A stretch of 61,215 bases of DNA from an uncultured Gammaproteobacteria bacterium (GTDB taxonomy: Bacteria; Pseudomonadota; Gammaproteobacteria; CAKMZV01). The notes under the pieces were generated by a model. The model was not told where the DNA came from and made no database searches. It saw nothing but the letters and a program-made list of their open reading frames with translations. A program made the position numbers and the translations under genes. The stretch is from the NCBI GenBank assembly GCA_929200535.1, contig CAKMZV010000010.1, positions 1 through 61,215 of the forward strand. The letters run 5' to 3'. Positions 1-20,674 of the stretch are shown here, one piece after another; position 1 is the stretch's first letter; each line of letters opens with the position of its first letter.

Positions 1-443
1 TGATTTCTTGTTTTATATAAAAGACAAAAGCCATCATCATTGCATTTTTGGATAGGGGCAATCTCTTTTCGACCAATTGTGCTATCATCTGTGTAAGTGC
101 CACTGGTATTTTTGTAATAGAATTGTAATGTTTTATAACGTGAATTCTCCACATCTTCTTTAGGGTGTTTGATAAACCAAATATCCTCAATGGGTATTTC
201 TTTGTAGCTAATATTATCACAATATATTGGGATAAGGCGATCACCAAATGCTGCTCGTGTGTCTTTGTAATAATCATTGGATCCTAAGCGTGATCTTGGT
301 CCTTTGTAGTCGGGATTTTCATACCAGTCAGTGTTATGGAAAAAGCCTCCGCCCGTTTGTCTTAGTCCATCTGGCCACGTATAACAACTTGAAAGGAGCA
401 TTGAGATCAATATGACGAAGAGATAACGAGTGATTTTTTTCAT
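1..443 (-). CDS. Small lipoprotein after TpsA, possible immunity protein (3' end outside window)
   Basis: An open frame begins with ATG at 443 and runs off the left edge after about 147 codons. Its ATG overlaps the TGA of the exoprotein gene (ATGA), so the two are probably translationally coupled. The protein starts with a lysine-containing n-region and a short hydrophobic stretch ending in the lipobox LSSC (Cys about residue 20), so it should be a lipoprotein exposed to the periplasm or outer membrane. The mature part begins YTWPDG and contains several Tyr/Trp-rich segments. I recognise no family. Position directly after a polymorphic-toxin-like C-terminus is where immunity genes normally lie, and lipoprotein immunity proteins are known for type VI lipase effectors; that role here is inference. 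Confidence 0.75.
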   Translation of the reverse strand, partial: MKKITRYLFVILISMLLSSCYTWPDGLRQTGGGFFHNTDWYENPDYKGPRSRLGSNDYYKDTRAAFGDRLIPIYCDNISYKEIPIEDIWFIKHPKEDVENSRYKTLQFYYKNTSGTYTDDSTIGRKEIAPIQKCNDDGFCLLYKTRN

Positions 444-3400
444 TGTTGTTTGTCCTTTTTGTTTTTAAAATAGTCTGAGTGCCCTGGCTGGCTCCAAGTA
501 TAGGGCTTAAATATATTAAGAGGATAGCTGACATAATCGCCATCATTACGTATTGGGAGTTCAACATTGTTTCCACCCCCAAACCGTGCTTGTATATCCT
601 CCTTACTATTCTGAAACGGTCTCCAAGGATTACCAAAGGTGTTATAGGTATGCCCTCGATTGGGGTTGTTTTTTGCTCCTTGTTCCAGAATGAGTGTACC
701 TTGGGAGTGTGCGTGAACTTTAAGGTTTTCTGTTTCACTTAGCCATTGATCGGCTTGTTTGCTATTGGCTGAGCCAATGCCGATATAGTCCACTGCGGAT
801 TCGATGACATCGTATAAAAGACCGTATGTGGGATTGTGCCAAATTTGCGGGTCTTTATTGCCTGTCATTTTTTGCGCTGCTGTTTTGGCGTCTTTATCAT
901 CGTTTAGTATCCCATTGATAAAGACATCATCACTATGTAGATTGCCTATTTTCTTTAAGGTAGGGGTTATTCCTGTGCCTTTGGCAAAAATATCGAAATC
1001 GTTTTTGATTTGCTTTTGTCCATCTTTTGAGAGTAGGCGGTTATCCACGTTTATATTGGCATCTAAGCCCCCGGTTTGCCAGTCTCGGTCGATGGTTTGG
1101 GTGTTGTTGAGGTCATTATTGCCGCCGATTAGGGTGCCTTGTTTGGTTTTGCCGATGGTGGCGAGGGTGGTGCCTTGTTTGTCTGTGCCGTTGTTGTTGG
1201 CTCCGAGGGTGAAGTTGCTTTGGCTTAGGCTGAGGTTAATGCCATTGCTGTTGCTTTTGTCGGTGTCTTTGAGGTTTTCTTCGGTGTAGGTATTGACTTG
1301 CCAGTCGAGGTTGCCTTGGTCGGTGAGGGTGCCGTCGTTATTGATGAGGGCATTGGCGATTAAGCCCCCTTTGTTGTGTAGGGTGTTGGCTTTGATGCGG
1401 GCTGAGTTGGTGCCGATCAATTGGGTTTGTTGTGCAGTCCATGTTTTGTTTGAGGAATTTTCACCTTTGCTGATGCTGAGGCTGTTTGGTGCACCACTTT
1501 CATTCAGTCCTGCATTTTGACTTTGGTTGGAGCCTTGGCTTTGTTCGGTGTTTTGCACGCTGGCGAGGGTGAGCTCATCAATATCAACGGTGAGGTTGTC
1601 GGCAATGACGTTGGCTCCTTGAATGAGCCCTGTATTGGCGGTTAGATTGATGTTGGTAGCGTTGATATTGCTCAGCGTATGTTGGGTGCCTTCGGTGCGT
1701 TGTCTGTTTTTGCTGAAGCTGAGACTACCTCCAGTTATTCCTTGGTCACTGGCAGTGATGGTTTGGCTTTTGGAATCGCTGCCGCTTTCACTGCTGTTAT
1801 GGCTGATGCCACTGAGGATATTGAGTTCATCGGTTTGGATGGATAGGGATTCGGCGTTGATGGCACTGCCGATTAGGGAGGTGCGTTCGGCGGTGCGGAT
1901 GGTGAGGTTGTTTTTAATGTTGAGGTTGCTACCTTGGTAGGTTTGGGTTTGGGTGCGTTGGTATTGGTTTTTTTCTTCGTTGGTAGCACTGCCTGAGACA
2001 TAGAATCCAGCACTACCTGTTTTGCCAGCGGCATTGGCTCCGTTTTTAGCCGCTTGTAGGGTGGCGTTTGCGAGTTGGGCCTCAGCTGCGATGAGGTTGG
2101 CTGTAAAGTCTTTGATACTATCTGGGTCTCGTTTTCCTGCATCAATTTCTTTTTTAGCTTTTTCTAAGGCTTCAGTGGCTTTGGCAACGTCTTGTGTGGC
2201 TTGGCGTACGTGGTTGGCTGATTGAAGTGTATCGACATAGGCATTTTTGATGCCAATTTCTATTTTTTGGGTGAGGGTGCGTTGTTGTTCTTCAGTGCTT
2301 TGAGTGTTATTAACTCCTTTGATAGTAAGGTTAGTGGCAAGGAGTTGGGCATCATCGGCTTCTAAATTTAGGGCTTGGAGGGTGAGGTCGTTGTCGGCAT
2401 CAATAATCAAGGAGCCCGCTTGAATGTTAGCATTTTTATGGGTGGTTTTTTGGTTGATAGTAGTTTTGCTGTTTTCTGTGCGTTCTACTCCTGCGACACG
2501 TAGGGTGGCTTTGTCTTTGTCTAATTTACTACCAAGTCCATTGATACTGGTTTGGCTTTTTTTGGTTTTGCTGAGTTGGCTTTCTTTGGCTGCAAGAATA
2601 TTCACATCGGTGGCTTTGAGGTAGGCGTTTTTATTGATGTTTAGCGTGCTTCCTTGAATCAGGATTTCATTGTTTGCCATGGCGATAAGGTTATCGGCTT
2701 TGAGGCTGGTGACGGCGGCTTGGGTTTGGCTGTTGTGTGTTTCTTCTGCTTGATCGGTGATGATGGGTCCTGTGTGTTCAAGGAGTTTTTCACCAATTAA
2801 GCCACTGCCAGCAACGAGGGTTGTTAGCCCTTCTGAAAGTTCTCGTAGCCCACCTGAGAGTCCGCTTTTGTTATAGCTATAGTTGCTGTTTTTAAGCTCT
2901 AAGGCTTGCATTTTGATATTATCAGGTCCATTCTTGGCAAATTGTATGCGTCCGAGGTTGTCTTTTTTAATGGCACCTTTGTCATCTTTTAGGACGGTGC
3001 GTTGTCCGATAATGGCTTGTTGGTTGGCACTGAGATTACCGCCGATAAGGAGAATGTCTTTTTTTGCATTGAGTTTGAGTTTGCCACCTGAGTTGAGGGT
3101 GAAGTTGGCAGCACGTTGATTGCTGGCACGGTGTCCTTTGTTGCTGTAGTCAAAGGCTCCTTCACGGCTTTTGCTATAGCTGTGGTTGCTTTGGTTTATA
3201 CCACTAATAAGGTTGAGGTTTTTGCCCGCACTGAGGTTGAGAGTGCCGGTGGTGTTGTGGATAGCGGATGCGAGGAGGTTGAGGTTGCCTGCGGTTTGGA
3301 TGGTGATGCCGTTGGCACTGTTGATGGTGCTGGCTTGGTGGGTGGCTTTGTTGTTGGTTGCAGTGTAGTCGGTGGTTTCACTTCCGTCGAGGAAACTGCC

Positions 3401-6400
3401 ACCTGAGGTTTCGGTTTTTTTGCGGCTTTCGCTTTGGGTGTTGATGACTGATTGTTGGGTGTAGTTGCCACCAACGATGAAGGTGCCTTTGTCACCAATA
3501 TCAATGTCGGTGCCTTGGAATGTGAGGTCACCTCCAGTTTGGATTTGCATAATTTTTCCAGTTTTGAGGGTGCTTACGGTGTGGTCTGTACGATTGCGTT
3601 GAACTTCCCATTTACCTTCGTTACTGAATTTGCGTTGTTCAAGGGCGAGGCTGTTAAATTGCATATTGCCGGTGAGGTTGGCGATGAGGTTTTGATCGGC
3701 TTGGATGTTTCCTGCAGTGTCGGTGAAGCTGTTGCCTTGGATGTGGAGATCACCTCTTGATTGAATGCTGGCAATGGCATCTATGCCACTGCTTTTGAAG
3801 TATTGGCTTCCTTCGGTAGCACTCCATGTGGTGCGATTGGTAAGGGTGCTGGCTTTTAGGAGGGCGTAGCCTTGGCTTTTGATTTCACTGCCGATGTTGT
3901 CGAGGCGTTTTTGAGCAATAAGGTTTAAGTTGCCGCCTGAGCGAATACCAGTTTGAGTTGCCTTATCACGGGCACCAGTGAACCAGCTGATGCTGTTGGT
4001 GGTGCTTTGGTTGAGGATGTTTTGAGCTTGGAGGGTGAGGTCGTTGCCACTTTCGATATTGCCGTCTATATTGCGAATGTCGCCTTCGACTTCTAAGTTG
4101 AGATCATTGGTGGCAACGAGGTATCCAGAGTTATTGACATCACCTGAAATGTCAAGGTCGATATTGTCTGCCATCATAATGGCACCGTCACGAATAATGA
4201 TGCGATCGCGGGTGTTTTGAGAGAGGTGGATTTTGGGGACGAGGACGTTTTTACCGTTAATGTGTTCATATTCGTACCAGATTATGTCTTTTTTTAGAGC
4301 GGCGATTTGTTCTGCAGTGAGTCTGATGCCGACTTTGAGTTGAAGATCTTCAGAGACATCGATTGCGTTGTCGTAGAGGCGTTGCATTTGCTCGTCCATG
4401 GTGTTGATGTCGTCTTCAAGGTAGGGTTTGTGGCTGAGTTGGGCGATGGTTTCAGAGAGAATTTGTTGTTCGGTGTAGGCATCGGCAAAGACGGTTACTC
4501 CAGCTTCGTATGGGTTGAAGCCGATACGCTCAAAGAAGTAGGCAGAGGCAAGGAATTTTTCATTGTCAGTAAAGCGGGTGCGTGATTCGATGAGGTAGAG
4601 GCTGTCAGGATTACGGTTGGCGGCGAGTTGGTAGGCGGCATTGAGGCGTTGGGCACTTTTTTCTCGTTGTGTTTCGTCAGTGAGGGGTTTTTTTCCGTCA
4701 ACTATTGTGTGTTTTTTGGTGATTGTTTTTGTGTTTTTTTTCTGGATGCCAGTTATGGCAGTATGGTCTGAGAAGGTATAACCATCATTATTGCCATTTG
4801 AACTAAGCAGGGAAATGGGGTCCAGTGAGCCTTGTTCTTTGGCAACGGAAGCAATGGATAGTGTGTTGGCGGTGAAGTCACCGCTACGAGCATCCACTGC
4901 ATTAACAGAGGGAGGCGTGATGCCATTTTTGATATTTTGACTGTTGCCTGTAATACCATCTGAAGCACTAATTGAGCCACCTATTTTACTATTTCGACCT
5001 CTTATTTGTATAGAAACAACGTGGTAACTAATCCAGCGCGTATGATATTTTTTCTCACATCCACACCATCCGCCATTCCATTTATAGTACCCATCTAACG
5101 CCGCTTTACTCTCTTTTAGCCAATATTGTTCTTGTAATTCTTGGGTTGTGTTTGAAATGGTATTGACGTTAGCCATAGTTAAATGCGCATTAGAACGAAT
5201 AATGCTGAATTGATTATTTACAATGTTACTATCAAGAATCATATTGCTGTTGGATATGATATTCCCTTTTTGATATGGGTTGACTCGTTCAGTCCATAGG
5301 CTTTCGGATTTATGTGTTGCATAGGGAGAATTTCTTTGCCCGTTATCGTAACCTGGATGGGCAGTGTAGTATACAGTTTTGGTTTGAGTGGTCTTTCTTA
5401 TAAAATTTCCGGTATAGGTATTGGTTAAAGTATTGGTTCTGAGAGTCATTGTTCCGGCACTTTTAATTGCCGCAGCTTGGTTGTAAATACTACTGTTACG
5501 GGAGTTGTTTTTATGAATATGTAGGTTGCCTGCACTGTAGATGGCTGCGTTTTCATAGTTGTTTAGTGCATTCACATTAAGATCCATATTACCACCAGAG
5601 TAAATATACCCGTTGGCTTGATTATTAAGAGAAGAGGTTGCGTTAATGGAAAGATTTTTTTGAGCGGCAAGGACGTGGCTATTTGTGTTAATGGTATGAG
5701 CATTTAGGGTAAGGTTGCCACGGCTGTTGAAATCTTCTGTGAGATTGAAGTTACCATTGAATGTCAGGTTGTTGGTGCCTGTGCCTCCGATTAGCTCGAG
5801 TGTGGATTGCTGAAATGCGTGGTTAAGGTTGAGTGTTAAGTTATTATCAGAGCGTATGATTCCTTGTAGGTTGTTTTTATCGGTGCTATCACTTTTCAAT
5901 GTTAGGGTTTGTTTACCGTAGATGGTGGTGTTTGATGTATTTTTAATAGTGGAGACATCGAGGTTTAATTGGTTAAAGGCAAGGTTGGCTTGGTTGTCAA
6001 TAGTATTGGCGTTGATATTGAGGGTGTTTGTGCCGTTTTGCTGTGCTTGGTTGGTGAAGGTGTCGGTGATATTGAGAGATATATCACCCTGATCTCGGAA
6101 CCAGTTTGCAGTGGTGAGGATGAGGTCGTTGGCATTTAGGGTGAGTTTGTTTTGGACATTGATGGAGCCTCCTGTTTGTAACCATTCGCCAGTTAAGGCG
6201 AGATTTTCACCAATGAGGGCTCCTGTATTCCCTTGGTTGAAGGTGCTTGTTAGGGTGATGCTGTCTGCTATGATCTTGCCGTAATTGTTGACGCGTTTAA
6301 TGGAATTATCAGCACGAATATTTTTGGCTTTGAGAGTGGCTGAGTTGGTGTTTTCTATGGTGGCTTGAGTATGTTTAAGAAGGAGAGTTTTATTAAGGTT

Positions 6401-9292
6401 TAGAGTGCCTTGGTTAGTGAGATTAGTGCCGCCAAAGGTGAGGTTATCAGCGTAGAGTTTGCCGCTGTTGTTTAGGGTGGTTACTGCTGTGGCTTGAATA
6501 TCGCCGATGGTTTGGATGGCTCCTTTGTTGATGAGGTTTTGTGTTTGAATGGTTATGTTATCTCGTGAGAGCCATTTTGCTGTTGTTGAGTTAGTGATGG
6601 TGTCATTTATATTCCAGAGAGCTGTATTAGTGATGATAAAGCCATTATTGTCGAGGCTGTTTGCTTGAATACTGGCTTGCCCTGTTGTGGTTAAGTTGCC
6701 TTGATTGTCAATGGTATTGGCTTGGATGGTTGCATTGGTGAGCTGTAATGAGCCTTCTCCTAAGTTATTAAGTTGTTGTGTATTGATTGTGTTTTGTCCA
6801 AGTGAGAGGAATGTGCCGTAGTTATTGATGGTTTGAATGTTGTTGGTTTTGAAGTGCGTTTGTGAGAAGAGTTGAGCACCACGATGATTATTTAAGTTTT
6901 GACCTGTGAAGGTGAATTGTTTTTTAATACCAAAGTTACCGTGGTTATTTAGTGTGCCAGAGAGAATGGCTGTATCATAGGCATTGATGGTGCCGTGGTT
7001 AGTGATGTTGGCTGGAGCGTTTAGTGTGCCATTAGATAGGATAATTCCTGAGGATTGATTGTTTAGAGTGGTGCTGTTAAAGTTACTATTACCTTGGGTG
7101 TAGATTGTTCCTGAGTTTGAACTGTTGGTGTGGTTTAGGGTGAGGTTTTGAGCGGTTTGTAATAGACCTTGGTTATTAAGTTCTTGCCCATTGAGTGTGA
7201 GGTTCGTATTGGCAAGGATTTTTCCAGTTTGGGTGTTTTCTAATTGATTGGCATAGATTGTTGAGGTGTTGCTGGTTTGTATGCCGTCCGAGTTAATAAG
7301 GCGAGTGGTAGTGGCGTTGAGGGTTTGGGTAAAGAGGATGCCTTGGTTATTGAGTTGGTTAAGGGTGAGTTGGCTGTGATTGCTTTGCAGATGTCCATTA
7401 TTGGTAAGGAGATTGGCATTGATTTGTTGATCCTGAGCAATCCAAGTGCCGTGGTTGGTTAAGGTGCCTTGGGTGTTATCATATTGGCTGTTGCCTTGGG
7501 TATTTAGGTAGCCTGTGTTGAGTAGGTTATTTCCTGTGAAATGGCTGGTGCCGATAAGGAGGATAGTGCCTTGATTGTTTAGGCTATTGTGGTGGGTGCT
7601 GTTACCTCGGATAATGATTGTGCCACTGGTGGCGTTGGTGGTGTGGGCTTGGTTGTTGAGGTTTCCTACGGTTTCGAGATGGGCATTGTTGTATAGGTTA
7701 GTACCGTTAAAGAAGCTATTTCCTTGGGTGTATATGGTGCCTAAGTTGGTGCTGGCAAGGCTATTTATGTAAGTATTATTGGCACTCTGAATAAGACCGG
7801 TATTAAGTAGGTTAGCACCAATTAGACTGAGATTTTGATTAGATAGGAGGCGTCCGGTATTATGGATATGCTGAGTGTTGAGTGTTAGGCTAATAGTGGA
7901 ATCAATAATGCCGTGGTTAGTGAGTTTATCGTCAATAGTAAGTTGCCATGCTCCGTTAAGATCATTGAGGGTGCCTTGTTTTTGATTGGTAAATTGCTTG
8001 GCGTTGAGCGTTAGTGTGATGATATCCCAGTCACTATTGTTGGTGAGTTGTGTGATGTTTAGGGTAGCTTTTTTTGCTTGTAAATCTTGCATTTGTATTT
8101 GCAATTCCTGTGCCTGAATATTGAGGGAGTTGCTTATTATCGATTGGTAGAGGGTGCCACTGGTCGTTTGAATATTAACGTGATCTGCTACTATGGTGTG
8201 ATTAATTTTGGTGTTGAGGGTATGGGCGTTGAGTTTGAGTTCGTTTGGGGTATATATGTCTCCTGTAATGTTTAGGTTGCCGAGTGTATTTAGGTGGATT
8301 TTTCCTTGTTTACTGTAGGTTTGGTTAGTTTGAGTAAGGCTTGTCGCATTGACGTAGATGTTTTTTTCGCTGAGGAGGTTTTTATAGGTTAGGTTGCCGT
8401 TGGCATCTATGTGGATATTGTCTTCGGTGGCGATGAGGGTGTTGTCGAGTTTTACACCAACTCCTTTTTCGGTGGCTATTAGGCGGATGTTGCCAGCGTA
8501 CATTGAGCCGATGGCTTGTATTGATAAATCGCCTGTTGCGGTGCGTTGGAGTGAGTTGATTAGGTGTTTGTCGTATTGGTATTGCCCATTACCTGCTTGG
8601 ATTTCTAAGTTTTTTCCTGCGTGTAAGTCGCCTCGGATTTTGTGGATTTGTGAAATAAGACGTAAGTAGTTTGCTCCGCGTGCATCTAAGCCAAGGTTAC
8701 TGCCTTCAGCTCCTTCAATAAGGAGTTCGCCTTGGGTGATTTGATAGAGATCAGGACGTCCATTATTTAGGATTGCCCTGCCTGTAATGAGGGAGATATC
8801 GTTGGTGTTGATAAATCCAGCTCCTTTGGCGTATATGCCATTAGGATTTGCTAGGATGAGCGCGGCGTTTTTACCAAATATTTCTGTGTAGCCGTATAGG
8901 TGGCTGATTTTATCACTGGTTACTTGGTTGAGGATGAGACTGGCTCCGTCTCCTGTATTAAAGTTAGGGTTGGCGTAGGTGGAGCCACCGAGGTGGCTGA
9001 TACCGACTTTGTCGCTGTTGTTGATAATTAAGCCACTGGGGTCAACGTCAAATTGATTGTAGTTATTGACAGATACGCCTTGATTGTTCGGGCGAGCAAT
9101 ATTGATTATCTCTACTCCGTTGGGCGCTTTATCTACCTCTGTGTTGGTGGAGCCATCGATTTGTACGGCTGCATTGACTAGCATTGTTTGAAAGAGAAAA
9201 CAGCAGGCTGTTATGGCTGTTGCAAAGCGGTGTAGTATCCCTTTTTGAGGAGTGGAGGATAGCAGAGTGAATTGAGGTGGATGTTTTTTCAT
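440..9292 (-). CDS. Two-partner secretion exoprotein (TpsA, FHA/CdiA type) with C-terminal alpha/beta-hydrolase-like domain
   Basis: This 2950-residue protein has an extended signal peptide (to about residue 41, ending VNAAVQ), then the TPS secretion domain with its hallmark NPNGI at about 150 and SLITG soon after. A very long Asn/Thr/Gln/Leu-rich region of haemagglutinin-type beta-helix repeats follows (motifs such as LNNQG, NLTLN). The last 170 residues differ in character. They hold FINGI, YNPT-like HNPTYG, a nucleophile elbow AHSQG (Ser about 2863), NDGDYV (Asp about 2917-2919) and PGHSDY (His about 2938), which together suggest a lipase or esterase fold. No VENN motif is present, so it is not a typical enterobacterial CdiA-CT junction. 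It is secreted by the TpsB gene 23 bp upstream. The secretion role is firm; the toxin role is inferred. Confidence 0.93.
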   Translation of the reverse strand: MKKHPPQFTLLSSTPQKGILHRFATAITACCFLFQTMLVNAAVQIDGSTNTEVDKAPNGVEIINIARPNNQGVSVNNYNQFDVDPSGLIINNSDKVGISHLGGSTYANPNFNTGDGASLILNQVTSDKISHLYGYTEIFGKNAALILANPNGIYAKGAGFINTNDISLITGRAILNNGRPDLYQITQGELLIEGAEGSNLGLDARGANYLRLISQIHKIRGDLHAGKNLEIQAGNGQYQYDKHLINSLQRTATGDLSIQAIGSMYAGNIRLIATEKGVGVKLDNTLIATEDNIHIDANGNLTYKNLLSEKNIYVNATSLTQTNQTYSKQGKIHLNTLGNLNITGDIYTPNELKLNAHTLNTKINHTIVADHVNIQTTSGTLYQSIISNSLNIQAQELQIQMQDLQAKKATLNITQLTNNSDWDIITLTLNAKQFTNQKQGTLNDLNGAWQLTIDDKLTNHGIIDSTISLTLNTQHIHNTGRLLSNQNLSLIGANLLNTGLIQSANNTYINSLASTNLGTIYTQGNSFFNGTNLYNNAHLETVGNLNNQAHTTNATSGTIIIRGNSTHHNSLNNQGTILLIGTSHFTGNNLLNTGYLNTQGNSQYDNTQGTLTNHGTWIAQDQQINANLLTNNGHLQSNHSQLTLNQLNNQGILFTQTLNATTTRLINSDGIQTSNTSTIYANQLENTQTGKILANTNLTLNGQELNNQGLLQTAQNLTLNHTNSSNSGTIYTQGNSNFNSTTLNNQSSGIILSNGTLNAPANITNHGTINAYDTAILSGTLNNHGNFGIKKQFTFTGQNLNNHRGAQLFSQTHFKTNNIQTINNYGTFLSLGQNTINTQQLNNLGEGSLQLTNATIQANTIDNQGNLTTTGQASIQANSLDNNGFIITNTALWNINDTITNSTTAKWLSRDNITIQTQNLINKGAIQTIGDIQATAVTTLNNSGKLYADNLTFGGTNLTNQGTLNLNKTLLLKHTQATIENTNSATLKAKNIRADNSIKRVNNYGKIIADSITLTSTFNQGNTGALIGENLALTGEWLQTGGSINVQNKLTLNANDLILTTANWFRDQGDISLNITDTFTNQAQQNGTNTLNINANTIDNQANLAFNQLNLDVSTIKNTSNTTIYGKQTLTLKSDSTDKNNLQGIIRSDNNLTLNLNHAFQQSTLELIGGTGTNNLTFNGNFNLTEDFNSRGNLTLNAHTINTNSHVLAAQKNLSINATSSLNNQANGYIYSGGNMDLNVNALNNYENAAIYSAGNLHIHKNNSRNSSIYNQAAAIKSAGTMTLRTNTLTNTYTGNFIRKTTQTKTVYYTAHPGYDNGQRNSPYATHKSESLWTERVNPYQKGNIISNSNMILDSNIVNNQFSIIRSNAHLTMANVNTISNTTQELQEQYWLKESKAALDGYYKWNGGWCGCEKKYHTRWISYHVVSIQIRGRNSKIGGSISASDGITGNSQNIKNGITPPSVNAVDARSGDFTANTLSIASVAKEQGSLDPISLLSSNGNNDGYTFSDHTAITGIQKKNTKTITKKHTIVDGKKPLTDETQREKSAQRLNAAYQLAANRNPDSLYLIESRTRFTDNEKFLASAYFFERIGFNPYEAGVTVFADAYTEQQILSETIAQLSHKPYLEDDINTMDEQMQRLYDNAIDVSEDLQLKVGIRLTAEQIAALKKDIIWYEYEHINGKNVLVPKIHLSQNTRDRIIIRDGAIMMADNIDLDISGDVNNSGYLVATNDLNLEVEGDIRNIDGNIESGNDLTLQAQNILNQSTTNSISWFTGARDKATQTGIRSGGNLNLIAQKRLDNIGSEIKSQGYALLKASTLTNRTTWSATEGSQYFKSSGIDAIASIQSRGDLHIQGNSFTDTAGNIQADQNLIANLTGNMQFNSLALEQRKFSNEGKWEVQRNRTDHTVSTLKTGKIMQIQTGGDLTFQGTDIDIGDKGTFIVGGNYTQQSVINTQSESRKKTETSGGSFLDGSETTDYTATNNKATHQASTINSANGITIQTAGNLNLLASAIHNTTGTLNLSAGKNLNLISGINQSNHSYSKSREGAFDYSNKGHRASNQRAANFTLNSGGKLKLNAKKDILLIGGNLSANQQAIIGQRTVLKDDKGAIKKDNLGRIQFAKNGPDNIKMQALELKNSNYSYNKSGLSGGLRELSEGLTTLVAGSGLIGEKLLEHTGPIITDQAEETHNSQTQAAVTSLKADNLIAMANNEILIQGSTLNINKNAYLKATDVNILAAKESQLSKTKKSQTSINGLGSKLDKDKATLRVAGVERTENSKTTINQKTTHKNANIQAGSLIIDADNDLTLQALNLEADDAQLLATNLTIKGVNNTQSTEEQQRTLTQKIEIGIKNAYVDTLQSANHVRQATQDVAKATEALEKAKKEIDAGKRDPDSIKDFTANLIAAEAQLANATLQAAKNGANAAGKTGSAGFYVSGSATNEEKNQYQRTQTQTYQGSNLNIKNNLTIRTAERTSLIGSAINAESLSIQTDELNILSGISHNSSESGSDSKSQTITASDQGITGGSLSFSKNRQRTEGTQHTLSNINATNINLTANTGLIQGANVIADNLTVDIDELTLASVQNTEQSQGSNQSQNAGLNESGAPNSLSISKGENSSNKTWTAQQTQLIGTNSARIKANTLHNKGGLIANALINNDGTLTDQGNLDWQVNTYTEENLKDTDKSNSNGINLSLSQSNFTLGANNNGTDKQGTTLATIGKTKQGTLIGGNNDLNNTQTIDRDWQTGGLDANINVDNRLLSKDGQKQIKNDFDIFAKGTGITPTLKKIGNLHSDDVFINGILNDDKDAKTAAQKMTGNKDPQIWHNPTYGLLYDVIESAVDYIGIGSANSKQADQWLSETENLKVHAHSQGTLILEQGAKNNPNRGHTYNTFGNPWRPFQNSKEDIQARFGGGNNVELPIRNDGDYVSYPLNIFKPYTWSQPGHSDYFKNKKDKQQ

Positions 9293-9315: not shown

Positions 9316-10908
9316 TTAGTAGCTAAGGGTGAAAAGAATATTTTGACTGCTGCCGTCTTCTTCGTTTGGTGAAAGCGATTGAGCATTGTGGGTAAAACCG
9401 AGCTGCCAGTGTTTTCCCGATAGGTTGAGATTAATGGCGTGCGATGATATATCGAGTTCGTTTTTGGTGTTTGAGTTTGTTTCGTAGCGAAAGTAATCCC
9501 ATTTTGCAGTGTATGTGAAGCTGGAAAGTAATTTTTTAAGGTAGTGGGTTATATGGTTTTTAGCGGTAAAAAATTTGGCAATTTCTTTTCCTAATAACCA
9601 TTGGTATTGCGGTTTGATTAGTAGTCCAGTATCAGCACTTGAACTTGCGTAGGAGAGCCTTTCTTGATTGAGGAGTACATCTTGGGATTGTTGACCGTCA
9701 ATTTGTGCGGAAAAAACTCCTCCAATCCAACGAAGGTTGTTAACATAGCTGTAGTTAATGGAGATTTTATTAAGTTGAAACTGGCGTTTAGGGGTGAGGT
9801 TTGTTGTGACAGAGCTGTCTTTATCTGCATCAAACCAGTCTGTACCGCGGCGGTGTGTTAGTTTCCAGGTGAGGTTTTGAGGAGAAAAATAAAGGTTGTG
9901 TTCAAGCCCTATTTCAGCCGCTGAGTTTTTATGGCTGCTTACTTCAGATAATGTTTGATTTATATGCACTGTGTTAATTCGATGATCTGCTCCAGTGTGC
10001 ATATATAGGCGAGTGCGGGTATTGCGGTGGAGCGTTTTCTTAATGAGTAGAGTGCTGTGTTCGGTGTCATTTTCAATGAGGAAAGGGGTGTTGGCTGTTC
10101 CTGATTTTGATGCGGAAATTGTGCGGGAGTGATTGATTTTACTTTCAAAGGAGCGATAAGGGATGGTGAGTGAGGCTTGGTTGTTAATGCTATGGTTTTC
10201 TGCTGTATCGGGTGAGTTGATTTGACGTGAGAAAGACCAGCCATCATTTATGCCTAGTAATTGGTTAAGGTTTCCCTGAATTAATAGTGAATCGTTACTA
10301 TTTTGCAGTAGACCGTGAGTGTAGGTTTGGCTAAGTGATATTGCTTTTAATATGCCGTGTTTGGTGTGGATATTCGAGTAACCCACTCGGTCTGTTGGGA
10401 TAATATCTAAAGTTGTTTGGCGTAGTGATAGGGCTTTTAGTTTTTCAATGCGATCATCAAGTTGGTGGATTTTGAGAGGCTTGCCTTCTAAGTCCTTAAG
10501 CATCCAATATAGATGGTTGGATTTTCCTTCTGGAATAGGGTTTCCTTCTTGGTCAAAAAATAGAAATTTGTTTAAGATTCCATCTGTAACAATAATGGTA
10601 AGTAGCCCATTAGAACTAATATCTTGTGGTAGTTTTATGGTTGCTTTACTTGTGATATAACCTTCCTTGAGTAAGTAGCCGTTGAGGTAGTGGATTAATT
10701 TTAAAATCTTTTTTGTATCAATACATTGAGTATTTTCCCAGTGTTTATTTATGATCGGAATTAATTCTTCTCTTAGGGATGTGCCAACTATATCTATTGA
10801 ACTTATTTTTAGACAATTCGTGTGATAAGTTGCAAATGATTGAGGGGCTAGCATAGTGAGTGGTAAATACAATGAGAATACTCTGATGGTTATTAAGAGC
10901 TTGTTCAA
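9316..10908 (-). CDS. TpsB outer-membrane transporter (FhaC/ShlB/HecB family)
   Basis: The 530-residue protein has a signal peptide (cleavage near SFAT, about residue 27). Next come a POTRA-like region (about 35-170, with INKHW, GYITSKATIKLPQ and the GxLxIxVxDG-like LLTIIVTDG) and a C-terminal beta-barrel ending in aromatic Tyr, as expected for Omp85-superfamily proteins. It should translocate the downstream TpsA across the outer membrane. It precedes tpsA by 23 bp. One oddity: the conserved VRG(Y/F) motif of barrel loop L6 is not visible where expected, just after the ERLSY segment near residue 416, and the protein is shorter than the usual 550-580. It is either divergent or impaired. The family assignment is firm because of the POTRA features and context. 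Confidence 0.88.
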   Translation of the reverse strand: MNKLLITIRVFSLYLPLTMLAPQSFATYHTNCLKISSIDIVGTSLREELIPIINKHWENTQCIDTKKILKLIHYLNGYLLKEGYITSKATIKLPQDISSNGLLTIIVTDGILNKFLFFDQEGNPIPEGKSNHLYWMLKDLEGKPLKIHQLDDRIEKLKALSLRQTTLDIIPTDRVGYSNIHTKHGILKAISLSQTYTHGLLQNSNDSLLIQGNLNQLLGINDGWSFSRQINSPDTAENHSINNQASLTIPYRSFESKINHSRTISASKSGTANTPFLIENDTEHSTLLIKKTLHRNTRTRLYMHTGADHRINTVHINQTLSEVSSHKNSAAEIGLEHNLYFSPQNLTWKLTHRRGTDWFDADKDSSVTTNLTPKRQFQLNKISINYSYVNNLRWIGGVFSAQIDGQQSQDVLLNQERLSYASSSADTGLLIKPQYQWLLGKEIAKFFTAKNHITHYLKKLLSSFTYTAKWDYFRYETNSNTKNELDISSHAINLNLSGKHWQLGFTHNAQSLSPNEEDGSSQNILFTLSY

Positions 10909-10981: not shown

Positions 10982-11908
10982 TTATTTTGTATTGCTTGTC
11001 CAATGTTTTTTCTGCCAACTCTGTGCTTTTTTTTGAGCGTTAGTAAGTTGTACTCGACTCATCTGTTGTGATAGTTGGGCAAGTTTTCTTTGGGCTTGTA
11101 CAGCTCCTTGACTGGAGGCTAAGTTGTAGAATTGATGGGCGGTGATAAGGTCCTTTTTGTTGCCAAGCCCTTCTTCATTAATTTTGGCATAGGCAATTAA
11201 TGCTGGAATAATACGTTTTTTTGAAGCGGCAAGATACCATTGTTTTGCTTTTTTAGTATCTTTTGAAACTCCAAGCCCTGAAAAATAAGAGTTTGCTAAG
11301 CTGAACTGAGCAGGTCCATAGTCAAGCAGAGCTGCTTTTTTGAATAGTTGATGGGCTTTGGATCGATTTATAGGGAAGAACTTACCATTAAAGAGTAGGT
11401 TAGCGTATAAGGTCATTGCTTCTGGGTTTTTGTCAAGGATAGCTTTTTCAAAATATTGTTGTGATTTTTTAAAATCTTGTAAAACGCCTACACCTTCGAT
11501 ATAGTTCATTGCACAGTATTGATAGGCTTTTATGTAGTTACCTATGCAAGCATTTTGATAGAGAGAGGCAATTTGTATAGGGGGTATATTGTTTGCAAAT
11601 TCAGGTGATGAATAGGCTTGAGCAAGTAAGTAATAACGCTTAGGTGTGTTTGTTAGTGAGTTGTTAGTGAGTATTGTTAGTGCTTTTTTTGTTTCGCCTT
11701 TTTTTAATAACTTTTCTGCTTTATTAAGTTGTGTTGAGGAGGTGGGATTTGCGGGGCTTCCTTGTTCGCTAAGAGGTCTATTTTCTGCATAAATATTGGT
11801 TATCAAACAGGAGAGTAAAAGTGCCGTAACACAGTGTATTCTTTGATGGGTTGTAAGCAGTTTTTTTTCTGTTTTAGTTTGAGTGCATTGGCAGTGGCTT
11901 TTAGACAT
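10982..11908 (-). CDS. Sel1-repeat (tetratricopeptide-like) secreted protein
   Basis: The 308-residue protein has a long charged N-terminus followed by a hydrophobic segment (about residues 27-42, ending YAEN), consistent with a signal peptide or anchor. Several Sel1-like repeats follow, visible as A-x-Y-x2-A/G-N-Y-I/F-x-G-x-G patterns (CAMNYIEGVGV, ANSYFSGLGV, AKINEEGLG) with intervening AxxLFxKAA helices. Sel1 repeats form alpha-solenoids for protein-protein contacts. It is the first gene of a probable operon with tpsB (73 bp downstream) and tpsA. A link to the exoprotein's secretion or regulation is suggested only by position. Confidence 0.8.
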   Translation of the reverse strand: MSKSHCQCTQTKTEKKLLTTHQRIHCVTALLLSCLITNIYAENRPLSEQGSPANPTSSTQLNKAEKLLKKGETKKALTILTNNSLTNTPKRYYLLAQAYSSPEFANNIPPIQIASLYQNACIGNYIKAYQYCAMNYIEGVGVLQDFKKSQQYFEKAILDKNPEAMTLYANLLFNGKFFPINRSKAHQLFKKAALLDYGPAQFSLANSYFSGLGVSKDTKKAKQWYLAASKKRIIPALIAYAKINEEGLGNKKDLITAHQFYNLASSQGAVQAQRKLAQLSQQMSRVQLTNAQKKAQSWQKKHWTSNTK

Positions 11909-17710: not shown

Positions 17711-20674
17711 TTAGTGAGTAGTAGAAGGGATTTGATCAATCAAGTTTGTATAGTTATCAGTAACGACATAGCGTGCTTCGGTTCCTAAAGCTTCAAAGTG
17801 TTTCCGACCACATTGAATTTTGGCATTTTCTACCACACGCAACTGATCTTCTAAAAGCTTTCCTTTGCTTTCAACGACAAAATAAAGTTTTTCCCTGCCA
17901 TCCATCTCTAAGAGCACTGCCCAATCTGGGTTATACGAACCAAGTGGGGTATCAATCTTAAACCAGTTTGGAAGTTTGGTGTACACTTTAATGTCTGAAT
18001 TTTTTTCAAAGGACTGCGCAAGATTAGATTCAATATCTGAATCATAGACAACATAATTATAGGTTGATTTTTGAGCCTCAAACATATTTTTATTCAAATA
18101 TCCAATCAGCTCTTCGCTTTCAAAAAGCTCTTGTGCATAAAAATGTTCATCACCGATTTTTTGATACTTGATACCATCAACAATAAAGTTTTGCATCTCA
18201 CTCTGAATCAATTGCTTAGCGCCATCAATAAATTTTTGAGGATTATTTTTAAAATCCTCAAAGCGCCCACTTTTGATTAGAATATCGACAATAGATTGCC
18301 TCTTAAGATTTGTTTCATTTTGCAGATAGCTTAAAATATCTGGAATTTGATAATCACGTGCATCGTATATATGTGTGCTTTCGTCGACTTGTTCAGCACT
18401 CACGCCACCTTTGCTAATCTCAGTTTTTGCACGGGAATACTCAAACTTAGTTTTGCCGACAATTAGATTTTCCCGAATGCTTTCCGCACATTTTTCAATA
18501 AGTTCCTCGGGATTGAAATTCACATTATAGACCGTTTTATATTTAATGCGATCCCACAGTTCTTTAAATTCAGGGTTATCAAATACCGCTTTATTTAGTT
18601 GTATCGTGCGCTTATTGTCATTATTCTTGATGTTAAGATCACCTGCCACTTTCTTGAGTGTTGCTGTGATGGCTTCTCGCTGTTTTTCAAATTGTTCTGG
18701 GAGTACAATCTTATCCTCTTTCAATGCCTTTTTAAGTTCATCAGTCACTTTACCACGTTGATCAATATATTGATTTTCTAAGAGGGCGTTCCAAATATTC
18801 TCAGAACTTTCTATACCCAAAAATACTTGTTCTCCATTATCTGTTTCAATCAAAATATTGGCAAAACTATGCTCTTCAATAACACCGAATTTAATGCCTT
18901 CCTCTTGCTCAATTTCCCGCTGTAATCCTTCAACAAAATTTTCATAGGATTCATTCGTCATAACAGTCAAGGTATTGACCTCAAAGCCATGAACACGTTC
19001 ACCACTTTGATTGACCGCTATACGCATCCCTCGTCCAATCTCTTGGCGTTTCTTGATGGTTGATTTGGTTTCATTTAGCGTACATATTTGGAAGACATTT
19101 GGATTGTCCCAGCCTTCTTTTAGGGCAGAGTGAGAAAAGATAAATTTCAACTTGGAATCAAAGCTAAGCAACTCTTCTTTTTTCTTCATAATCAGGCTGT
19201 AGGTATCCGCATCATCTACAGTTGTTCCCTTAGTATCTTTAAAATTTCCTTTTTTATCTTGTGAAAAATAACCATTATGAACATTATGAACCAGCTCTGG
19301 TAAAGTTTCACTATCTACTTCTTTGAATAAGCGATTGTATTTTGGTTTTTTGATGGCTTTGGTATATTCTTCTTCAAACATAATGGCATATTTGCCTTTT
19401 TGATTTGGTGCATCATAATCACGATAATTAGCAACTTTATCAATGAAAAACAAGCTCAAAACCTTAATCCCCATTGGTGTGAGTCTGAGTTCTTTATCCA
19501 AATGCTCCTCAATGGTTTTGCGGATTTGTAGGCGTTTATACTCATCCTCATTCACATCGCCAATAGAGTGGTGTAGGCGAATAATATCCTGTTTGCTGGT
19601 GAAATCGATATATTCGTTGCCCTCTTCGCAGTGAATATCATTCACTATATAACCATCATAAATAGTTCTACCACGAGAAAGGCTAAGAAAATCATCGCCT
19701 TGCTTAACCCATTTTTCAGTGCGTTTAACGTCATTTTTTTGCTGAATATCAAATGCTACCTTGGCACGGTGCCCGTTTCTGTTATCGACTGCGAGTAGCT
19801 TGATATACGCCTTATTATGCCCATCTTGCACTTGAATAGAGGCGACTTCAATTTGTTTTACTAATTTTTGCTCATAAGCATCAATAGAATCCAGTTTATA
19901 TAACATATTATGCTTATCGGTGTGCGTGGCAGAGTATCGGAAGGTACATAGCGGATTAAGGGACTGGAGTGCCACGGCTGCTTTAGGCGTAGTATCCACA
20001 CTTTGTGGCTCATCGATAATGACAATAGGATTGGTCTGTTTGATAAAATCAATTGGCACTCCATTCATTTTATCATTATGACGATGAATAATATTGGCAT
20101 TGGTTTCTTTGGATGAATCGGCAAAGCTTTTGCGGAACGCATCAATATTGATTACCATAATTTGGATAGAATCATTGGTGGCAAAACTGCGCACTTGCTC
20201 TAATCGCCCAGAGTTGTAGACAAAATAATCATACGGCACATTGTCATAGTGCTCCCGGAAGTGCTTTTCTGTCATTTGTAGCGATTTTAAAACGCCCTCT
20301 TTAATCGCAATACTTGGCACAACAATGATAAACTTAGTCAAGCCATATTTTTTATGCATCTCAAAAATTGAACGTAGATAAACATAAGTTTTTCCAGTTC
20401 CCGTTTCCATCTCAATCGTGAAGTCTCGGTTTTTCAGCTCTTTCGTTTGCTTTAAGCCATTATTGAGCTGAATTTTACGGACGTTTTCCTGTATTTCATC
20501 ATCAACAAGCTTGAGCTTATTGCCTGTACCATATTCATTAGCAAAATTTGATAAACTATAGCGTGTAGGCATCGTAAAAGTCGATTTATTCAACTCCTGT
20601 CCCTCAAATACTCTTACGGCAGATTCCCATGCACGGCGTTGGTGAGGTTGGTTTGGATCAAATTTAATCTTCAT
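17711..20674 (-). CDS. Type III restriction enzyme, Res subunit
   Basis: The 987-residue protein combines a superfamily 2 helicase core with a C-terminal nuclease. The Walker A motif METGTGKTYVYL lies near residue 92, and motif II reads IDEPQ (Res proteins often have DEPH). FSHSALKEGWDNPNVF and KKRQEIGRGMRIAVN (motifs V-VI) follow near residues 510-560. At the C-terminus, NPDWAVLLE and VVESKGK form a PD-(D/E)XK endonuclease site. With Mod it would cleave DNA after ATP-dependent translocation between unmethylated sites. Its ATG overlaps the stop of a 52-codon ORF that in turn overlaps mod, so all three are coupled. The gene appears intact. Confidence 0.95.
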   Translation of the reverse strand: MKIKFDPNQPHQRRAWESAVRVFEGQELNKSTFTMPTRYSLSNFANEYGTGNKLKLVDDEIQENVRKIQLNNGLKQTKELKNRDFTIEMETGTGKTYVYLRSIFEMHKKYGLTKFIIVVPSIAIKEGVLKSLQMTEKHFREHYDNVPYDYFVYNSGRLEQVRSFATNDSIQIMVINIDAFRKSFADSSKETNANIIHRHNDKMNGVPIDFIKQTNPIVIIDEPQSVDTTPKAAVALQSLNPLCTFRYSATHTDKHNMLYKLDSIDAYEQKLVKQIEVASIQVQDGHNKAYIKLLAVDNRNGHRAKVAFDIQQKNDVKRTEKWVKQGDDFLSLSRGRTIYDGYIVNDIHCEEGNEYIDFTSKQDIIRLHHSIGDVNEDEYKRLQIRKTIEEHLDKELRLTPMGIKVLSLFFIDKVANYRDYDAPNQKGKYAIMFEEEYTKAIKKPKYNRLFKEVDSETLPELVHNVHNGYFSQDKKGNFKDTKGTTVDDADTYSLIMKKKEELLSFDSKLKFIFSHSALKEGWDNPNVFQICTLNETKSTIKKRQEIGRGMRIAVNQSGERVHGFEVNTLTVMTNESYENFVEGLQREIEQEEGIKFGVIEEHSFANILIETDNGEQVFLGIESSENIWNALLENQYIDQRGKVTDELKKALKEDKIVLPEQFEKQREAITATLKKVAGDLNIKNNDNKRTIQLNKAVFDNPEFKELWDRIKYKTVYNVNFNPEELIEKCAESIRENLIVGKTKFEYSRAKTEISKGGVSAEQVDESTHIYDARDYQIPDILSYLQNETNLKRQSIVDILIKSGRFEDFKNNPQKFIDGAKQLIQSEMQNFIVDGIKYQKIGDEHFYAQELFESEELIGYLNKNMFEAQKSTYNYVVYDSDIESNLAQSFEKNSDIKVYTKLPNWFKIDTPLGSYNPDWAVLLEMDGREKLYFVVESKGKLLEDQLRVVENAKIQCGRKHFEALGTEARYVVTDNYTNLIDQIPSTTH

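What the first reader, a model, noticed from the sequence alone, without database searches (positions are those of the whole stretch)
1..9292. Candidate contact-dependent lipase toxin with a lipoprotein immunity partner
The TpsA C-terminus differs from its repeat region and carries AHSQG (Ser about 2863), NDGDYV (Asp about 2917-2919) and PGHSDY (His about 2938), spaced like an alpha/beta-hydrolase triad. The next gene overlaps by ATGA and has a lipobox (LSSC). Type VI lipase effectors use lipoprotein immunity proteins; a two-partner-secretion equivalent would be new or little described. Seen: motifs, overlap, lipobox. Inferred: toxicity and immunity.
Basis: partly seen in the sequence, partly recalled or inferred. 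Interest (0 to 1): 0.85.

Follow-up and report, generated by a model that had tools for sequence, protein, structure and literature searches.

The report
Contact-delivered lipase-like toxin, lipoprotein antidote
A giant bacterial surface protein ends in what is very probably a lipase-like toxin for neighbouring cells, and the overlapping next gene encodes a membrane-anchored lipoprotein that is probably its antidote; the same pairing recurs in other bacteria, but no activity has been shown.

Summary
The motifs, the ATGA overlap and the lipobox are in the sequence as described. The window is a whole contig, so the lipoprotein gene is cut off at base 3. The TpsA C-terminus (about 2788-2950) is homologous to hydrolase C-termini of other TpsA proteins (hhalign 96%, E 2.5e-9, covering the first half and the nucleophile elbow). 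Asp2919 and His2938 fit the relatives' D-x-V and HS[NDT]Y motifs (shuffle p 3.5e-5). The window domain's own AF2 model failed (pLDDT 41). A relative's weak model matches cutinases and lipases.

The decisive test was comparative. All 11 hydrolase-bearing TpsA loci found, window included, have a lipobox protein as the immediate next gene. None of 8 relatives in one genus with the same FHA-2 region but other C-termini do. The reading therefore holds as a candidate: a TPS/CDI-type alpha/beta-hydrolase toxin with a lipoprotein immunity protein. Enzyme activity, lipid substrate, toxicity and immunity are untested.

It is not wholly new. Zhang et al. 2012 predicted this toxin family (Tox-ABhydrolase-2; type V, FilH) without a known substrate and with SUKH immunity. 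The consistent lipoprotein partner in TPS loci appears undescribed in the papers I could search.

The parts
440..9292 (-). TpsA/CdiA-like exoprotein, 2950 aa
   Evidence: Pfam TPS and Fil_haemagg_2
8390..9166 (-). TPS secretion domain, residues 43-301; the only PF05860 match in the genome
   Evidence: (E 5.2e-43)
1520..1972 (-). FHA-2-type haemagglutinin repeats (Fil_haemagg_2), best stretch residues 2441-2591
   Evidence: E 1.4e-23
998..1033 (-). Presumed junction LSKDGQKQIKND (2754-2765) between FHA-2 and the toxin cassette; no VENN motif
   Evidence: sequence; role inferred by position
443..931 (-). C-terminal alpha/beta-hydrolase domain, residues 2788-2950
821..835 (-). NPTYG (2820-2824), conserved family motif [YH]NP[TE]xG
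698..712 (-). Nucleophile elbow AHSQG, Ser2863
   Evidence: HSQG invariant
536..538 (-). Candidate catalytic Asp2919 (D-x-V motif)
479..481 (-). Candidate catalytic His2938 (HSDY; HS[ND]Y or HSTY in the TpsA relatives)
440..443 (-). ATGA overlap of tpsA stop and lipoprotein start
3..443 (-). Candidate lipoprotein immunity gene, truncated by the contig end; lipobox LSSC at residues 17-20
   Evidence: no Pfam/NCBIfam family above cut-off
9316..10908 (-). TpsB/CdiB-like transporter (POTRA_2 and ShlB), 23 bp upstream of tpsA

Best explanation
The locus is a tpsB-tpsA-immunity operon of the contact-dependent growth inhibition type. TpsB exports the TpsA stick. On contact, the C-terminal cassette (about 160-200 aa after the FHA-2 region) enters the target periplasm and acts as a serine alpha/beta-hydrolase (Ser2863, Asp2919, His2938), most likely an esterase or phospholipase damaging envelope lipids from the periplasmic side. 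The overlapping gene makes a lipoprotein anchored on the periplasmic face of the producer's envelope, where it binds and blocks hydrolase arriving from sister cells. Shown: gene order, domain homology, conserved triad motifs, and strict co-occurrence of hydrolase and lipoprotein across loci. Inferred: delivery on contact, lipid substrate, periplasmic action, toxicity and immunity.
For: Homology of the window domain to hydrolase C-termini of TpsA proteins: hhalign 96.2%, E 2.5e-9; BLASTP 37% over 89 aa with Thiotrichaceae L029; profile hits at E 8e-5 or better. The family model (L025, pTM 0.52) matches solved cutinases and lipases, top E 3.9e-4, and the family profile's best PDB sequence hits are cutinases (E 0.0055). 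D-x-V and HS[NDT]Y motifs. Next gene is a lipobox protein starting within 4 nt of the stop in all 11 hydrolase TpsA loci with a readable next gene: window, L005, L020/L037, L022, L025-L029, L031, L042. Zero of 8 non-hydrolase TpsA relatives in one genus have one (Fisher 1.3e-5). Orphan toxin fragment plus lipoprotein beside a transposase-like ORF, L015. Toxin and lipoprotein identities diverge in step across 7 loci, r = 0.98.
Against: AF2 of the window domain failed (pLDDT 41, no hydrolase hit). Its second half is shorter than in the other TpsA hydrolases and aligns only by motif. The window lipoprotein shares only its signal region with the other lipoproteins and is truncated, so it is a partner by position and lipobox alone. 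The r = 0.98 partly reflects shared ancestry, and the 11 loci are not fully independent. No activity data. Zhang et al. could not link this hydrolase family to lipases.
Confidence: 0.7

Rival explanations
1. It is a TPS-delivered alpha/beta-hydrolase toxin with a lipoprotein immunity protein, but the substrate is not a membrane lipid (for example a peptidoglycan ester or amide, lipoprotein acyl chains, or a thioester).
For: The fold covers many activities. Zhang et al. 2012 state that Tox-ABhydrolase-2 showed no specific relationship to characterised lipases. Substrate cannot be read from these sequences.
Against: Nearest solved structures of the relative's model are cutinases and lipases, though at low model confidence; lipoprotein immunity proteins are known for phospholipase effectors.
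Confidence: 0.25
2. The lipoprotein is a folding or activating partner (like a lipase-specific foldase, or the dual-role Tli of Enterobacter cloacae) rather than, or as well as, an immunity protein.
For: Lipase foldases are encoded next to their lipases (own knowledge); E. cloacae Tli both activates and neutralises its phospholipase, depending on location (PMC10294624).
Against: No Pfam match to a lipase chaperone in the tested lipoproteins. The orphan toxin-lipoprotein cassette and the exchange together with the toxin are typical of immunity genes, although an obligate foldase would also travel with its enzyme.
Confidence: 0.12
3. TpsA is an adhesin or secreted enzyme acting on a host or on extracellular lipid, and the lipoprotein is an accessory such as BcpO.
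For: Many TpsA proteins are adhesins; BcpO is an accessory lipoprotein of Burkholderia CDI (PMC9086364).
Against: BcpO lies after the immunity gene in bcpAIOB, whereas here the lipoprotein directly overlaps tpsA. The same domain caps Rhs proteins and free effectors with overlapping partner genes. Relatives exchange C-termini and next genes.
Confidence: 0.1
4. The C-terminus is a degenerate, inactive remnant of a hydrolase cassette.
For: Second half shortened and divergent; window model not confident.
Against: ORF intact over 2950 aa; all three triad motifs kept in order; partner gene overlap kept.
Confidence: 0.1

Closest known systems
Tox-ABhydrolase-2 (Zhang et al. 2012, PMC3482391)
   Same: alpha/beta-hydrolase toxin domain with NG, [DE], HSxG, D and H signature, C-terminal to FilH or Rhs repeats, T5SS/T6SS delivery, substrate unknown
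   Different: Only Imm-SUKH is listed as partner there and Imm65 (with Tox-JAB-1) is the only lipoprotein immunity in that collection; here the partners are lipoproteins. Membership judged from the published signature, not from their alignment
CDI systems (cdiBAI), including Pseudomonas class III LYVT pre-toxin motif (Mercy et al. 2016, PMC4725963)
   Same: TpsB, TPS domain, FHA repeats, exchangeable C-terminus, overlapping downstream gene; the Pseudomonas relatives carry DLYVT/DLYAS-type junctions
   Different: No VENN motif in the window; hydrolase instead of nuclease or ionophore; lipoprotein instead of a cytosolic or inner-membrane immunity protein
T6SS phospholipase effectors Tle with Tli immunity, e.g. 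Tle3/Tli3 and E. cloacae Tle/Tli (PMC9860674, PMC10294624)
   Same: Serine hydrolase toxin acting in the target periplasm with a lipoprotein immunity protein (literature); same logic proposed here
   Different: Fused to a TpsA rather than T6SS-delivered; no Tle family match for the window domain
BcpAIOB (Burkholderia)
   Same: A CDI locus with a lipoprotein gene
   Different: BcpO is an accessory placed after the immunity gene and before bcpB; here the order is B-A-lipoprotein

Membership tests
CDI (CdiBAI) | TpsB transporter adjacent to TpsA with TPS domain | tested here: met
   POTRA_2 and ShlB at 9316-10908; TPS E 5.2e-43
CDI (CdiBAI) | FHA-2 repeats before the C-terminus | tested here: met
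   Fil_haemagg_2 E 1.4e-23
CDI (CdiBAI) | VENN pre-toxin motif (E. coli type) | tested here: not met
   VENN absent. Other motifs are used in Pseudomonas, so this excludes only the E. coli type
CDI (CdiBAI) | C-terminus and next gene exchange as a unit behind a conserved stick | tested here: inconclusive
   met in relatives of one genus; the window's own TpsA has no close relative among 369 class genomes, so it could not be tested for this protein itself
CDI (CdiBAI) | Contact-dependent growth inhibition and specific immunity | not testable with these tools
   needs experiment
Tox-ABhydrolase-2 | NG, [DE], HSxG, D, H signature | tested here: met
   NG 2793-2794, D2828/E2831, HSQG 2862-2865, D2919, H2938
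Tox-ABhydrolase-2 | conserved [KR] | tested here: inconclusive
   no invariant basic residue between the acidic motif and HSQG; position not given in the paper text
Tox-ABhydrolase-2 | alpha/beta-hydrolase fold | tested here: inconclusive
   relative L025 matches cutinases (pTM 0.52); window domain's own model failed
T6SS Tle/Tli | delivery by T6SS and match to a Tle family | tested here: not met
   domain is fused to TpsA; no Tle or DUF2235 match
BcpAIOB | order A-I-O-B | tested here: not met
   order is B-A-lipoprotein; genes beyond the contig end not seen
Lipase foldase (Lif) | Lif family match | tested here: not met
   no Pfam hit for the tested lipoproteins

The most novel reading that the evidence does not exclude
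A class of contact-dependent inhibition that attacks the envelope from the periplasm: the TpsA hydrolase cassette needs no inner-membrane entry step, and is paired with lipoproteins of several unrelated families recruited independently (L025/L005 type, L022 type, window type), some perhaps also acting as activators as Tli does.
Probability: 0.4. Interest if true: 0.7.

Novelty: new variant of a known kind. Interest (0 to 1): 0.52.

Why it matters
The CDI effectors covered in the papers read here are delivered to the cytosol or act as ionophores (PMC9086364, PMC11630599). A periplasm-acting lipase-like CDI toxin with a lipoprotein antidote would show that the TPS route also delivers enzymes against the envelope, as type VI secretion does. 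It would give the 2012 Tox-ABhydrolase-2 prediction a site of action and an immunity partner, and it would make the inner-membrane entry step testable as optional.

Tried and rejected
AF2 on the window domain (181 aa, 8 sequences) gave pLDDT 41.5 and meaningless Foldseek hits. Whole-protein Pfam, NCBIfam, PADLOC and PDB sequence searches found nothing for the C-terminus. Plasmid, phage and viral-contig searches found no relatives (the single hits are chance). The lipoprotein had no relative in 340 class genomes, and profile comparison with the other lipoproteins matched only signal peptides. Pairwise global alignment of the second half was mostly not significant, so Asp and His are claimed from motifs only. 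PT-VENN as a control family found nothing anywhere, so it says nothing; replaced by the within-genus test. Weaker hits L010, L012, L014 and L023 were set aside as separate proteins or chance, without a partner gene of this kind. L033 (Parachlamydiales) and L030 (cut off) were not counted.

Full report
Observation. The window is the whole of contig C10 of a 1.97 Mb draft genome; no genome of the same genus or family was among the relatives searched, only of the same class. TpsA runs 440-9292 on the minus strand without a stop. It has a TPS domain (43-301) and FHA-2 repeats (best stretch 2441-2591), and a TpsB gene lies 23 bp upstream. It is the only TPS-domain protein in the genome. The motifs are at 2861 (AHSQG), 2916 (NDGDYV) and 2936 (PGHSDY); the stop and the next start overlap as ATGA; the next ORF has a lipobox ending at Cys20. 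That ORF runs off the contig, and no other contig repeats the end, so its length is unknown.

What the C-terminus is. Pfam, NCBIfam and PDB sequence searches find nothing. A search of 274 genomes gave one relative, L005, the end of another TpsA. Profiles then found the domain at the end of further TpsA proteins (L020, L022), of an Rhs protein (L008) and in free proteins of about 400 aa (L009, L011, L013, L019). A genome-collection scan added six more TpsA loci with a readable next gene: Pseudomonas, Halopseudomonas, Thiotrichaceae and an unnamed gammaproteobacterium. Against a profile of those six alone, the window domain scores 96.2%, E 2.5e-9, over 85 columns from the NGI strand to the AHSQG elbow; a separate profile of the Rhs and free forms gives 96.1%.

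Catalytic triad. The half after the elbow is shorter in the window than in other TpsA hydrolases, and pairwise alignment there is mostly not significant. All 11 relatives examined have D-x-V followed by H[ST] near the end, and the TpsA forms have HS[NDT]Y. The window has DYV (Asp2919) and HSDY (His2938); shuffling its second half gives that combination in 3.5e-5 of trials. HSDY is identical in L015. The window domain's own AF2 model is unusable. A model of relative L025 is weak (pLDDT 48, pTM 0.52), yet the Foldseek matches listed for it are nearly all cutinases, lipases and other serine hydrolases.

The partner gene. Of 11 hydrolase-bearing TpsA loci with a readable next gene, 11 have a lipobox protein starting within 4 nt of the stop. 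As a control I took TpsA proteins of one genus sharing the FHA-2 to junction region (59-74% identity) with L020. Their sequences diverge after a DLYVT/DLYAS-type junction, resembling the class III motif of Mercy et al.. Apart from L020 itself, one has the hydrolase and again a lipoprotein; eight with other C-termini and a readable next gene have no lipobox there. Fisher's exact test gives 1.3e-5, a guide only, as loci are related. In G126 a second, truncated hydrolase with its own lipoprotein lies beside a transposase-like ORF (L015), like the orphan toxin-immunity modules of CDI loci. Toxin and lipoprotein identities fall together over 21 pairs (r 0.98), the lipoprotein faster.

The lipoproteins are not one family. 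The Pseudomonas and L005/L029 types align with each other. The L022 and window lipoproteins match them only in the signal peptide. For the window the immunity assignment therefore rests on position, overlap and lipobox.

Mechanism and known systems. The simplest account is a CDI-type toxin released into the periplasm and blocked there by a lipoprotein; a cytoplasmic toxin would not need a lipoprotein antidote. Zhang et al. 2012 described Tox-ABhydrolase-2 with NG, [DE], [KR], HSxG, D, H in FilH and Rhs proteins of type V and VI systems. They listed SUKH immunity, named Imm65 (with Tox-JAB-1) as the only lipoprotein immunity in their set, and left its substrate open. T6SS lipases with lipoprotein immunity are well described. 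The 2022 review of CDI effectors contains neither 'lipase' nor 'hydrolase', and literature searches found no TPS lipase with a lipoprotein partner; subscription papers were not covered.

Verdict. It is a new variant of a known kind.

Noticed in passing
L005 and L015 (genome G126): One genome carries a full TpsA-hydrolase-lipoprotein locus and a second truncated hydrolase with its own lipoprotein beside a transposase-like ORF, as in orphan CDI modules.
   Followed up: partly
L043 and L047 (genome G750, contig C1): Two TpsA C-terminal modules about 2.5 kb apart share the FHA-2 region and junction but have different toxins and next genes: a tandem cassette array.
   Followed up: no
L020:2226-3403: The lipoprotein reading frame breaks after about 200 aa, with sequence similar to the rest of the relatives' protein in another frame: a possible frameshift in the immunity gene.
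   Followed up: no
window 10982-11908: Sel1-repeat protein encoded just upstream of tpsB on the same strand; possible operon member.
   Followed up: no
window 17711-20674: Type III restriction enzyme Res subunit (ResIII plus RE_endonuc domains).
   Followed up: no
L008, L009, L011, L013, L032: Rhs-linked and free forms of the hydrolase are followed by overlapping or adjacent genes that look, by eye, like Sec-exported non-lipoproteins: the same periplasmic logic with another anchor.
   Followed up: partly
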